Of a DNA stretch of 64,000 bases, positions 14,477-22,791 are shown in pieces. The notes under the pieces are model-generated. The model did no database searches, was not told where the DNA came from, and saw nothing but the letters and a program-made list of their open reading frames with translations. The stretch is taken from positions 45,183,291 to 45,247,290 of the forward strand of contig NC_088875.1 in NCBI RefSeq assembly GCF_032884065.1, read 5' to 3'. This DNA comes from Artemia franciscana (lineage: Eukaryota; Arthropoda; Branchiopoda; Anostraca; Artemiidae). Position 1 is the first letter of the stretch. Each line of letters opens with the position of its first letter. The position numbers and the translations under genes are program-made.

Positions 14477-15789
14477 TTAAGTGAAATCACTTCTGCGTCA
14501 GTCATACTAGTAGTATAGGGTCAACAGGGACGAGCAGCCAGTCTCACTACTATTTTCTTCCTTATTGGCCTAACCTCACGAGGAATGTTCAACAGCGATT
14601 CAAGTAGTGTTGCCATCTGCTTTGCTAAAGTCATAAATGACTTTTTTTGTTAACAAGAGTTATAAGTGGGGACATATTGTTTTCCAACAACACATGTTTT
14701 AGCTCTTAGGCAGCATTTTCTATTGATTTTATCGAATCAATGTCTGGAATAGGAATGTAACGTGACACCCAAGATTTCCTATGGTAAAAGAACGATACGT
14801 GACTCGACTCTTCCAACAAGCCATTGATAACATTATGTTCTTAGAAATACATTCTAGGCAAACAGTGCATTGTTTCTAGGCACTAGCCAACTGGTGTTAA
14901 GCATCCTTGCATAGTGCCAAGTTAATTGCGTAATCGATTTGTAAACTGGAGTTGGATTTTTGGCAAATGCTATTAGTGATTTTTTTCCAGGCGCCTTTTT
15001 GGCATAATTCCAAGAATAGGCATACCAAGTTGTTCTGAGGCAATTGCTAGACAGACATATTCTTTTGATGGACAATGATACTAGTTTTGGTCCCCAAAAA
15101 TTGTAACGAATAAATACAACTTGCAAGGTATCCTTTTTGTGATGAAATGGTCTCTAGCAGATTGTTTTCCGTTACCGGGTATGTCCATGATTTTAGATCC
15201 CCGGTTCCCCCTTCAGGGTTCCATGCCCCCTTCCAGGGCCCCAATAACCCCCTCCCAAAAAATGATTTTTTCTTTGAACTTGGAATTTCTAGGATAGAGA
15301 TTTATTTGAGACATCTAACTTTTGGGGGCTTAGAATTTTTTGGGACTTGCATTTTTTGGGGGAGGGGATGGGTACTCAGAAATTGTTTGAAAATTTTTTT
15401 TTTTGGTAGCTTAAATTTTTAACAATTTTTAGATTTTTTTTACATAGACACACAGACAGACATACAAAAAGACGCGTTGCAGGAATGGAGGGGTGCATGG
15501 CGCTGGTATCCATGTCATTGTTCCATCGACAACATGAATGATTACCCAATACCAGATGCTCGACAGACCAGGTGAGTGCACTCGTAAGGTGGGGGTGTAT
15601 GGTGCTTGTATTAATGGCATTTTTTCATCGACAACATGAATGGTTACGCAATGTTCGGCAGACCAGGTTCGAGCAGTTGTATTATGGGGGTATCTGACAC
15701 TTTTATTCATGGCTTTATTTCATCGACAAAATGAATTATTACGCAATACCAGATGCTTGACAGACCAGGTTCGTGCAGTTGTATATATG

Positions 15790-16385
15790 ATTGTCAAATA
15801 AGACTTGCTTGTAATACAACTTTGGATGCTCATCGAAGACTTTACACGTAAGAGGAACAATAAAAGTAATGTATGTCAAAGACGTTTCCTTAGGCTTCAG
15901 ATTTGCGTGCCCATCAAAGAAATCATACAAGCGAGAAGCCATACAATTTTGATATATGTTCAAAAAGGTTTTTCAGAGATCACGTTTGAACAGACTTCGA
16001 AGAATTCACACAGAAGAGAACAAAGGTGTGAGGTAAGTCAAAAAATGTTTTCTCGTAATTCAAATTTGTATTTTCATCAAAGAATACACACGAAATAACA
16101 GCCATACAAGTGGGGCGCATCTAAAAAAAAATTTCAGAAGCCATGTTTAAATAGACATCGAAGAATTCATACAAGAGACAAGTCACACAGGTCTGATGTA
16201 TATAGAAAAATGTTTCCTCATAATTCAGATTTGTATGTTAATCAAAGAATACACACGAAAGAGAAGCCATACAAGTGTGATGTATGCAAAAACAAACTTT
16301 CTTATGATTTAAATGTGCATGTTCATCAAAGAACTCATAAAGTCGAGAAGCCATACAAGTGCAAAGCATATCAAAAAAGGTGAGA
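15790..16385 (+). pseudogene. Decayed C2H2 zinc-finger array, left arm
   Basis: On the + strand, in shifting frames, fragments of Kruppel-type fingers recur about every 84 bp. The best preserved are near 16225-16385, where HQRIHTKEKPYKCDVC and EKPYKC can be read. About seven finger units are present. Stops and frame changes interrupt most of them, and no KRAB, ZAD or other partner domain is seen. The array lies inside the left arm of the large inverted-repeat structure and is mirrored by the larger array at 19090-21500. Confidence 0.65.
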
Positions 16386-16479
16386 AAACATCATTCATTT
16401 TGCAAATTAAAGAGTTTTTAACAGGTTCATATTAGAAACAGACGTGATATGCTGGTAATTAGGCTGAGATTGGCAACTT

Positions 16480-18960: not shown

Positions 18961-19089
18961 AATAACCTGTTAAATTTTCGTAGAAATCCTTTCAAATTGT
19001 CAATTTTAACCTCATTACCGGCATACCAAGGCTGTTTCTAATATGAACCTGTTGAAAGCCAGTTAATTTTCAAAATCAAAGAAGGTTTT

Positions 19090-21500
19090 TCACCTTTTTG
19101 TTATACTTTACATTTGATAGGTTTCGATTGTGTGAATTCTATGATGTACATGCAAATTTAAATTATGACAAAAACATTTTTTATGTACGTCACACTTGTA
19201 TGGCGTCTCTTTCGTGTATATTCTTTGAGAAATATAAAATTTTGATTATGAGAAGAAATTTTTGACATACATCACACCTGTATGGCTTCTCTTTTGTATG
19301 AATTCTTCGACGTTTATTGAAATATGACTTCTGAAAAAAAAGTTTTGACATACATTACACCCTAATGGCTTTTCTATTGTATAAATTCTTTGATGTGAAC
19401 ACGAATTTGAAACCCAAGAAAACATTTTTTTTACATACGTTGAATTTGCATGACTTCGCTTTTCGTGTGATTTTGTTGATGAGCTTGCAAAGTTGCATTA
19501 CGAGTAAACTTTTTGACATTCATCACACTCAAAAGACTGCTACTTTGTGCGAATCCTTTAATGTATATTTCAAATTGGAAACCTGATTAAACATTTTTTG
19601 ACATACATTATACTTGTATGGATTCTTTTTCGCATGAATTATTTCATGAGTGTGCAAATGTGAATTATGAGTATACTTTTTTGACATGCCTCACACTTAT
19701 ATGGATGCTCCTTTGGGTGAATTTATTAAAGTACATTTAAATTCGAATCCTGGGTAAATATTCCTTTGACATACATCACACTTTAATGGCTTCTCTTTCG
19801 TGTGTATTCTTTGATGAGTTCGAAAGTGCATATATGAATTATTAGAAAACATTATTGACATACATAAAACCTATATGCCTTCTCTTTTTGGTGAATTATT
19901 CGATGTCTATTCAAGTACGGCTTCCACAAAAACCTTTCTTTACATACATTACACTGGTAAGGCTTCTTGATTATATGAATTCTTTGATGTACGCGCAAAT
20001 TTGAAACCTGATTACAAATTTTTGACATAAATAGTACTTGTATGGCTTCTCTTTCGTGTGAATTCTTCGATGAGCATGTAAAGTTGTATTGCGAGTAAAC
20101 TTTTTTTCACACACGTCAAACTCATACAGCTACTTCGTTTGTGAATTCTTTCATGTGCATAGAAATTGGAAACTTGATCAAACCTTTTTTGAGATACAGT
20201 ACACCTGTATGGCTTTTCTTTCGTGTGGATTCTTTGATGAGTATGCAAAGTTGAATTATGAGTAAATTTTTTTTTGAGATGCTTCAAACGTACACGGATG
20301 CTACTTTGTGTGTATTTATTGATGTGCATCCAAAGTTAAAACCTAATTAAACATTTCTTTGACATACATCGCACTTGTATGGCTTTTCTTTCGTGTGTAT
20401 GTTTTGATGAGCATACAAATTTGAATTATGAAAAACATTTTTGACACACCTCAAACCTAAACGGTTTCTTTTTGGGTGAATTCTTTGATTTTTTTCCAAT
20501 ATATTTTCTAGAATAAACTTTTTTAGACACATTACATTTGTATGGCTTCTCGATTGTATAAATTATTTGGTGTGCACGCAAATTTGAAACCTGAATAAGC
20601 TTTTTTGACATAAATCACGCTTGTATGGCTTCTTTTTGGTGTGAACATGTAAAGCTGAACATGAAAATGCAAAGCTGAATTACGAGTATACCTTTTTTGA
20701 CATACCTCACTTACGTGACGTTGCTCCTTTGTGTAAATTCATTCATGTGTATGCAAGGTTCAAACCTGATTAAACCTTTTTTACATACATTACACTTTTA
20801 TGGTTTTGTATTGTATGAATTCTTTGATGAACATGCAAATTTGAATTATGAGAAGACATTTTGTGACATACATCACAGTCGTATGGCATTCTTTTTCGTG
20901 TGAATTCCTCGAAGAGCATGCAAAGTTGCACCGCGAGTCAACCTTTTTGACATATCTCACACTCATAAGGTTGCTTCTTTTTTGGGAATTCCTTTACGTG
21001 CATGCACATTTGAAACATTATTAAACCTTCTTCTTCATGCCTCAGACTCATATGTCTACTCCATTGTGTGAATTTGTAGATGTGCGGCAAATTTGAAACC
21101 TGAGTAGACATTATTTGACATATTTCACATTTATATGGCTTCTCTTTCGTGTGTATTCTTTGATGAAGATGCAAATTTTAATTATGAGAAAACATTTTTT
21201 AACATACATCACACCTGCATTATCTTTTGTGTGAATTCTTGGATGTATATTCAAATACAACTTTAGAAAAAAACCTTTTTTGACATATATATCGCACTTA
21301 TAGGTTTCTGGATTGTATGAATCTAGATTGTATGAACCTATTCTAGCTTTATTGTGCACGCAAATTTGAAATCTGAGAAAGTCATTTTCGACATACATCA
21401 CACTTGCATGGCTTCTGTTCCATCTAAATTGTTCGATGAGCATCCAAATCGCATTACGAATAAACTTTGTTTGACATACCTCACAATCATAAATACAAGC
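19090..21500 (-). pseudogene. Large decayed C2H2 zinc-finger array, right arm
   Basis: On the - strand, finger fragments spaced about 84 bp fill 2.4 kb, which is space for about 28 fingers. Readable linkers and finger starts include HTHQRIHTKEKPYRC (about 20230), HQNIHTKEKPYKCDVCQ (about 20380), HQIIYTIEKPYKC (about 20560) and LHQRIHTKEKPYKCEIC (about 21150). Frames shift every few fingers and many Cys or His are lost, so no long protein survives. Kruppel-type fingers bind DNA, but this copy is almost surely dead. It mirrors the smaller array at 15790-16385. Confidence 0.72.
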
Positions 21501-22791
21501 GAACACACGGTCCGTCAAGCATCTGGTATTGCGTAATCGTTCATATTGACTATAAAAGAGTTCCATAAATACTATAGTCCCATATACTCCCACCACACAA
21601 GCGCATGCACCTACTCTGTCGAGCATCTGGTATTGCGTAATCGTTCAGGTTGTCGATGAGACAATTCCACGAATACCGGTGCCATATACCCCCCCCCCCT
21701 TACAAGTGCACTCACATGGTCTGTCGAGCATGTGGTATTGTGTAATAATTCATGTTGTTGATGAAAAAATGACATGAATACCAGCGCCATTTCCTGTAAC
21801 ACGTCTTTTTGTATGTTTTTCTGTGTGTCTGTGTAAAAAATAAAAAATTCTGTCCCGAAACAAAAAAATTAAGTTCCACAAGAAAAGTCCCAAACAGTTT
21901 CTGAGTCCCCCTAAGAAAAATCCCCCAAAAATTCCCAAGAAAAATCCCAAAGAAAAGTTCAAAGAGAATAAGTCCAAAAAAATTTAAAGCCCCAAATAGT
22001 TTTAGGTCAAGTCCCAAAAACAGTAAGTTCATTGAAAAAAGGCGGTAGGGGAAAAAAGTTGGGGTGAAGGGGAAATTCTTCCCCCTTAACGGGGAATAGG
22101 AACATGGAGGGAGACGTGGGGATCCAAAGTCGTGCGCAAGCCCGGCAATGGAAAACCAATGTGCTCGGGACCATTACATTACAAAAAGGATATCTGGCCG
22201 GTTTTATTCATGACCGAAACAAGCGCCGTAGGCCATCAAAAGAATATGTTTGTCTAGCAATTATCTTGAATCACTGTGGTTTGCATATTCTTGGAATGAT
22301 GCCAAAATGCGCCCGGAAACAAATCACTGATAGCATTTATCAAAAATACAACTCCATTCAAGAAACCGAAAACGCACTTAACTTGGTATGATACAATGAT
22401 GCTTAACACCAGTTAGCTAGTAACCAGAAATAATACATGGTTTGCCTAGAATGAATTTTTAAGAATACAATATCAACAATGACTTGTTGGTATAGTCGAG
22501 TAACTTACTGGAAGAGCCTAGTAAATCATGGGTCTCACGTTAGATTCCTAAACCAGACGTAGATTCCACACAATAAGGGGGAAAAGCTGCTTAGAAGCTA
22601 AAAAATGTGTTGTTGGGAAAAAACAAATCGTCATCTATAGCTTTAGTTAACAAAAAAGCTATCTAAAACTGTAGTTATGTAGATGATAACGCTAGTGGAA
22701 TCGCCGTTAATCATCCTTCGTGGTCATAAGCCATTAAGGAGGAAAGGTGTTCAGGGGACTGGCTGCTCGCCCCTGTTGACCCGATACTACT
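21501..22791. repeat. Outer right arm of structure 1
   Basis: Reverse-complement partner of 14509-15790. Inside it, a unit with GTCGAGCATSTGGTATTGYG recurs about three times (21530-21760), mirroring units at 15540-15780. It is GC-mixed and has runs of C at 21690 and of G/C on the mirrored arm. No intact gene is seen. Confidence 0.65.

What the first reader, a model, noticed from the sequence alone, without database searches (positions are those of the whole stretch)
14509..22791. 8.3 kb foldback structure with zinc-finger arrays in both arms
The ends AGTAGTATAGGGTCAACAGG and AGTAGTATCGGGTCAACAGG face each other, and similarity continues through 2 kb of arm, including C2H2 arrays of unequal size (about 7 and 28 fingers). 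I know of no standard transposon class with finger arrays in its terminal inverted repeats. It could be a new class of large foldback element, or a palindromic duplication of a zinc-finger pseudogene region.
Basis: partly seen in the sequence, partly recalled or inferred. Interest (0 to 1): 0.75.

Follow-up and report, generated by a model that had tools for sequence, protein, structure and literature searches.

The report
Foldback transposon carrying zinc-finger arrays
This is an old, dead jumping element, probably from a brine shrimp genome, built as a giant inverted repeat whose two arms each carry the decayed remains of a zinc-finger array; its ends and target-site copies look like those of the virus-like Maverick transposons, a combination I did not find described.

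Summary
Window 14509-22791 is an inverted repeat: 14505-16292 aligns with 22795-20944 (70% over 1900 columns), and the inner ends of the arms align again (76% over 484). I counted 8 decayed C2H2 units in the left arm and 28 in the right. It is one copy of a dispersed, ancient foldback transposon family: related arms recur on many chromosomes, several in inverted pairs. Fingers mark a minority form: 1 of 16 loci picked by the arm tip alone has them. Finger arrays also lie in inverted pairs on C8, C19 and twice on C2, and in one arm on C11. [quoted passage not shown] I read it as a non-autonomous Maverick-like foldback whose arms took in a polydactyl C2H2 array as their tandem repeat. In the tree the arms of 5 of 6 elements group together on long branches, and copies differ without codon bias, so the family spread long ago and decayed neutrally. 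The loop holds a later insert from two places on C10 with a trypsin exon. Not shown: an autonomous partner with these arms, finger activity, the donor gene. New variant of a known kind.

The parts
14503..14508 (.). left 6-bp target-site duplication, CATACT (right copy AATACC, 4 of 6 match)
   Evidence: Weak for this copy alone; the length rests on several copies.
14509..15235 (+). TIP: outer part of the left arm, begins AGTAGTATAGGG; the most widely dispersed module
15470..15790 (+). M100: about 100-bp tandem module upstream of the fingers, left arm
15792..16408 (+). left C2H2 array, 8 decayed units (first and last partial)
16385..17312 (+). MID: second tandem repeat, left arm
17400..18484 (.). 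younger loop insert: 17400-17633 is 97% identical to one place on C10, 17644-18484 is 98% identical to another, 1.2 Mb apart; a 30-bp MID direct repeat starts at 17283 and 18493 on either side. Outer limits of the insert not placed to the base.
18040..18444 (-). open frame with a trypsin-domain exon inside the insert; not part of the ancestral element
   Evidence: Pfam Trypsin 2.8e-11
18509..18946 (+). MID, left arm continued up to the palindrome centre
18952..19088 (-). MID, right arm (short)
19092..21490 (-). right C2H2 array, 28 decayed units of several types with different recognition residues
21487..21790 (-). M100 module, right arm
22046..22791 (-). TIP: outer part of the right arm, ends ...ATACTACT
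22792..22797 (.). right 6-bp target-site duplication, AATACC

Best explanation
The structure is one ancient copy of a non-autonomous foldback DNA transposon family with Maverick-type ends. Two near-identical arms (TIP - M100 - finger array - MID) entered the genome together and made a 6-bp target duplication (duplication shown over several copies; the enzyme is inferred). A Maverick-like integrase acting in trans probably did the insertion (inferred). At some point a form of the arm took in a C2H2 coding array, which then served as the internal tandem repeat of the terminal inverted repeats; the units keep a readable C2H2 consensus (shown), the donor is unknown. After insertion the arms decayed neutrally (shown). 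The left array is probably the right array minus its middle, lost by exchange between repeats (inferred). Later, DNA from two places on C10 was pasted into the loop (shown by identity; the route is not).
For: Dispersal: 42 matches to the first 501 bp; 46 rows for the L028 arm plus 153 bp of flank, 40 of 803 candidates scored. In one search, leaving out the query and its segmental copy, none of 44 rows starts before base 149, the AGTAGTAT end being base 155. TIP-M100-ZNF in that order on both arms of the window and of L030 and on the one arm read of L044; ZNF with MID on both arms of L042; ZNF in inverted pairs in L043 and L045. Target duplications: six elements with both ends match 27 of 36 positions; the best of 26 shifted registers gives 14; of all 720 left-right pairings only the true one reaches 27. 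Four elements read after the hypothesis was set (L042, L022, C21, C4; the first two also belong to the six) give 18 of 24, p 1.3e-6. Vertebrate Mavericks are described with (AGT)2//(ACT)2 ends, 6-bp duplications and TIRs of 46-1447 bp (PMC8097293, passages). Tree: the window's two arms are sisters (96/87), as are those of L028, L034 and L022. This genome has 44 DNA_pol_B_2 matches; one such locus also has A32-ATPase-like and rve integrase frames.
Against: No arm similarity to the one Maverick locus examined, of 44 polymerase matches, and that locus's own inverted repeats were not found. No integrase or transposase was seen in the window element. The window copy's own duplication matches only 4 of 6. 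L021's arms are not sisters and its flanks match 2 of 6; I dropped it from the six because its inverted similarity runs past that point. The ends of L042 and L022 were placed by eye from arm alignments; another candidate left end of L022, AGTAGAAT, would give 2 of 6 (sequence). Positions 7-10 match 12 of 24, p 0.014, so the length is best read as 6 but is not sharp. In one search only 3 of 44 rows reach within 6 bases of the end; the others start at 167 or later. L042, L043 and L045 show no TIP similarity, and the outer ends of L043 and L045 were not placed. Finger order exceeds shuffles in only 2 of 29 arm pairs, both with L044; not for L030, nor for the window's two arms (0.45 against a maximum of 0.49).
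Confidence: 0.68

Rival explanations
1. A foldback element of a classical superfamily (Mutator-like, or P-superfamily like Galileo) whose ends happen to read AGTAGT.
For: Most foldbacks are said to belong to Mutator (PMC4079207 passages), and Galileo is in the P superfamily (PMC4168063 abstract). The anatomy, long TIRs with internal tandem repeats, is the same. One paper gives 4-10 bp duplications for the IS256/MuDR group (PMC10045372 passages), so 6 bp does not exclude Mutator; positions 7-10 match 12 of 24.
Against: The named foldbacks make 7-10 bp duplications (Tetris 8-10, Galileo 7-8); here positions 1-6 match 27 of 36 and the five positions before them 9 of 30. The end motif matches the Maverick one.
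Confidence: 0.2
2. A local inverted duplication of a zinc-finger pseudogene region, with the dispersed TIP being an unrelated repeat that sits at both outer edges.
For: The genome is rich in C2H2 sequence (3099 first-look candidates, 150 scored). Only 1 of 16 loci picked by TIP has fingers.
Against: TIP-M100-ZNF recurs on C8 (both arms) and C11 (one arm), and ZNF in inverted pairs on C19 and twice on C2. Finger order is shared between the window's right arm and C11: 19 pairs, 2.39 against a shuffled maximum of 1.75. Both ends coincide with the family's outer limit and a target duplication.
Confidence: 0.06
3. The finger arrays are only a satellite-like tandem repeat of coding origin and never encoded a protein within the element. 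This can hold together with the best explanation.
For: Codon positions differ about equally between copies: 90/466, 87/458 and 68/466 for L044 against the window's right arm, and 0.222, 0.199, 0.198 over 144 unit pairs taken from arm pairs scoring above 0.2. Conservation is flat by codon position across 82 units. Some finger-less copies translate to other simple repeats in their middles. The longest finger-region frames seen are 138-177 aa.
Against: The consensus of 82 units is a good C2H2 finger in one frame, and several finger types with distinct recognition residues recur at different loci, as in a polydactyl gene. Core C/H/F/L positions differ slightly less (279/1520) than helix ones (420/1923).
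Confidence: 0.45

Closest known systems
Foldback elements Tetris (Drosophila virilis) and Galileo
   Same: Long terminal inverted repeats with internal tandem repeats, copies without transposase, variable middle, non-TIR sequence drawn into TIRs (passages and abstract)
   Different: Tetris repeats have no reported coding capacity and those of Galileo hold transposase-binding sites; duplications are 7-10 bp. Here the repeat is a C2H2 finger array and duplications read as 6 bp
Maverick/Polinton elements
   Same: Ends (AGT)2 ... (ACT)2, 6-bp duplications, TIRs of hundreds of bases (passages); Maverick genes exist in this genome
   Different: No polymerase, capsid, ATPase or integrase frame seen in the element; most of it is arm; no sequence shared with the one Maverick locus examined
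Ginger2 transposons
   Same: Short AT-rich target, integrase-type transposase in the group (passages)
   Different: Ginger ends are TGTNR; these are AGTAGT

Membership tests
Foldback (FB-type) transposons | long inverted-repeat arms that make up most of the element | tested here: met
Foldback (FB-type) transposons | tandem repeats inside the arms, variable in number between arms and copies | tested here: met
   Finger units 8 and 28; MID and M100 repeats
Foldback (FB-type) transposons | dispersed copies with a common boundary and target-site duplication | tested here: met
   only 3 of 44 rows reach within 6 bases of the end
Maverick/Polinton | end motif (AGT)2 / (ACT)2 | tested here: met
   Exact at both ends of the window copy; degenerate in several other copies
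Maverick/Polinton | 6-bp target-site duplication | tested here: met
   27 of 36 in six elements; 18 of 24 in four read afterwards, two of them shared with the six. The window copy alone is 4 of 6
Maverick/Polinton | protein-primed polymerase, integrase, ATPase and capsid genes | tested here: not met
   No such frame in the element's frame lists or in the 7 frames scanned; it could only be a non-autonomous derivative
Maverick/Polinton | arms shared with an autonomous Maverick | tested here: inconclusive
   One of 44 polymerase matches examined, no similarity
Mutator-like / P-superfamily foldbacks | target duplications of the lengths reported for Tetris (8-10 bp) and Galileo (7-8 bp) | tested here: inconclusive
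   Six positions stand out, but positions 7-10 give 12 of 24, and 4-10 bp is given for the wider MuDR group
Mutator-like / P-superfamily foldbacks | mobilised by a Mutator-like or P-type transposase | not tested
   The genome was not searched for these transposases

The most novel reading that the evidence does not exclude
A Maverick-derived satellite element carried a complete polydactyl C2H2 gene in each arm, arising when a Maverick genome with a finger gene near one end folded back during replication, as happens in defective genomes of other protein-primed linear DNAs (recalled). The finger protein may have bound the element's own arm repeats or its silencing targets before the family died.
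Probability: 0.15. Interest if true: 0.8.

Novelty: new variant of a known kind. Interest (0 to 1): 0.52.

Why it matters
Foldback elements are usually tied to Mutator-like or P-type enzymes and to non-coding arm repeats. A family with Maverick-type ends, built mostly of arms, would widen how virus-like elements give rise to parasites of their own kind. A finger array inside terminal repeats also shows a route by which arrays of DNA-binding modules can be copied around a genome that is already rich in C2H2 sequence, and it warns annotators that some finger clusters are transposon arms.

Tried and rejected
Local inverted duplication of a finger gene: disfavoured because the same ordered modules recur at other loci and copies have target duplications. 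Duplication lengths 2-12 bp at ten offsets were scanned; the 6-bp register stood out beyond trivial self-matches of the end motif. Ginger2: ends differ. Trypsin exon as an element gene: rejected, because the insert is 97-98% identical to C10 while the arms are only 70% alike. Parent finger gene: not found; the best listed non-element protein matches are 53-59% identical, 150 of 3099 candidates scored and the list cut. Autonomous partner: one Maverick locus read in pieces, no link to the arms. The right arm of the C11 element was not reached within 12.5 kb. L043 and L045 outer ends could not be placed. The C4 pair gave 3 of 6 and is counted. Paper searches for finger arrays in foldback or Maverick elements: 1 of 1 listed; 20 of 26; 15 of 47; 4 of 4; 10 of 23; no such element appeared in those listings.
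Full report
Setting. The window lies at C13:45183291-45247290 of an assembly of 1,270,528,402 bases in 6468 contigs. That fits the published female Artemia franciscana assembly (1.27 Gb, 21 chromosomes; PMC11492255, passages), though that paper gives 6,486 scaffolds and a longest scaffold of about 67.3 Mb while C1 here is 71.5 Mb. The organism is therefore an inference, not a result.

Observation. The two ends and the inverted arms are real. Going inward, each arm has a TIP of about 0.7 kb, a 100-bp tandem module (M100), a C2H2 array, and a second tandem repeat (MID); the arms meet near 18947-18951. The left array has 8 units and the right 28. The left arm aligns to the right in two pieces, the outer part through the first fingers and then the last fingers with MID, which I read as loss of the middle of the left array. 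The finger-order test on these two arms alone does not exceed shuffles.

It is a family. The first 501 bp match 42 places, both window arms included, 40 of 580 first-look candidates having been scored. The arm of L028 with 153 bp of flank gives 46 rows from 40 of 803 candidates; leaving out the query and its segmental copy, none of 44 rows starts before base 149, the AGTAGTAT end being base 155, but only 3 start within 6 bases of it and the rest at 167 or later. Of the 16 loci picked by TIP (L021-L036), TIP lies on both strands in L021, L022, L023, L025, L028, L029, L030, L034, L035 and L036, and in L031 by an 89-bp fragment; L024, L026, L027, L032 and L033 show it on one strand. L029 and L023 are close copies of L028 and L021, flanks included, so not independent.

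Fingers in the family. Of those 16 loci only L030 has a finger array, so the finger-bearing form is a minority. L042-L045 were picked for their finger or MID matches. TIP-M100-ZNF lies on both arms of the window and of L030 and on the one arm of L044 that was read; ZNF with MID lies on both arms of L042; ZNF lies in inverted pairs in L043 and L045. L042, L043 and L045 show no TIP similarity; L042 still has AGTAGTATAGG at its outer left end. Of 29 arm pairs with three or more matched units, each tested with 30 shuffles, two exceed every shuffle: L044 with the window's right arm (19 pairs, 2.39 against 1.75) and L044 with the left arm (0.70 against 0.63); L030 does not. So an array with a set order of finger types existed before the window and C11 copies separated.

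Decay. Differences by codon position are about flat: 90/466, 87/458, 68/466 for L044 against the window's right arm; 758/3407, 663/3338, 670/3381 over 144 unit pairs from arm pairs scoring above 0.2. The 29-row tree of TIP segments (pieces under 330 bp and overlapping or duplicate loci left out) has end branches of median 0.12, 0.16 for each window arm, and short inner ones. The two arms are sisters in the window (96/87), L028 (99/89), L034 (100/97) and L022 (97/87); the three L035 pieces group together (97/95); the L021 arms do not. Near-identical arms at insertion followed by neutral decay explains this.

Target duplication. A scan of offsets and lengths on five elements showed one register: AGTAGTAT as the first bases and 6-bp duplications, 19 of 30, p 3.4e-5 before allowing for the registers tried. 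Six elements with both ends (window 4, L028 4, L030 4, L034 5, L042 5, L022 5) give 27 of 36; 26 other shifts give at most 14; 42 cross-element pairs, L021 included, average 1.69 of 6, with 3 at four or more and none at five; 1 of 720 pairings, the true one, reaches 27. L042, L022, the C21 pair (CAAGTT/CAAGCT, 5) and the C4 pair (3) were read after the hypothesis was fixed: 18 of 24, p 1.3e-6. Their ends were placed by eye from arm alignments; for L022 a different left end would give 2 of 6. All eight elements without L021 give 35 of 48; with it 37 of 54. L021 was dropped because its inverted similarity continues outside the supposed end. L042 and L022 are in both sets.

What moved it. Vertebrate Maverick ends are reported as (AGT)2//(ACT)2 with 6-bp duplications and TIRs of 46-1447 bp (PMC8097293, passages), and 6 bp is given as the Polinton length (PMC10045372, passages). 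The same passages give 4-10 bp for the MuDR group, so length alone does not decide. The genome holds 44 DNA_pol_B_2 matches, 91 of 154 candidates scored, with open frames up to 1302 aa. One of these loci, on C8, also has A32-ATPase-like and rve integrase frames. The pieces of it that I read share nothing with a set of 14 TIP segments. So Maverick-type mobilisation is the best-supported reading, by ends and duplication, not by shared sequence.

The loop. Window 17644-18484 is 98% identical to C10:32611795-32612637 and 17400-17633 is 97% identical to C10:33812958-33813192. The pieces are joined inside MID, with a 30-bp MID repeat on each side. This is a late insert with a trypsin exon, perhaps patched in during repair of a break in the palindrome, or carried by another element; I did not test which.

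Novelty. Foldbacks with tandem repeats in the arms are known and non-autonomous Mavericks are recalled to exist. I found no account of finger arrays in terminal inverted repeats in five searches whose listings were partly cut, which cover open-licence PubMed Central only. I therefore call it a new variant of a known kind.

Noticed in passing
17400-18484: Loop insert made of two pieces from chromosome C10, 1.2 Mb apart there, 97 and 98% identical, joined inside a tandem repeat; carries a trypsin exon at 18040-18444 (-).
   Followed up: partly
14065-14480: A 206-bp unit in two copies with 100% match, ending 28 bp before the element's left end.
   Followed up: no
6950-11621: GT dinucleotide array of about 2337 copies, nearly perfect.
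   Followed up: no
15792-16408 and 19092-21490: Many finger units also match the unit profile on the opposite strand (roughly positions 17-71, best E 1.7e-6), so the unit is partly palindromic.
   Followed up: no
L046 (C11:29990001-29997000): Past the C11 element's MID array, which runs for about 3.8 kb, a further set of tandem and inverted repeats fills much of the rest of the stretch.
   Followed up: no
C14:18491209-18500245: Two DNA_pol_B_2 matches facing each other about 6 kb apart, possibly a palindromic Maverick; the stretch could not be fetched.
   Followed up: no
L025 and L026: A 590-codon open frame beside each of two TIP copies that lie 17.5 kb apart on C21 with matching flanks.
   Followed up: no
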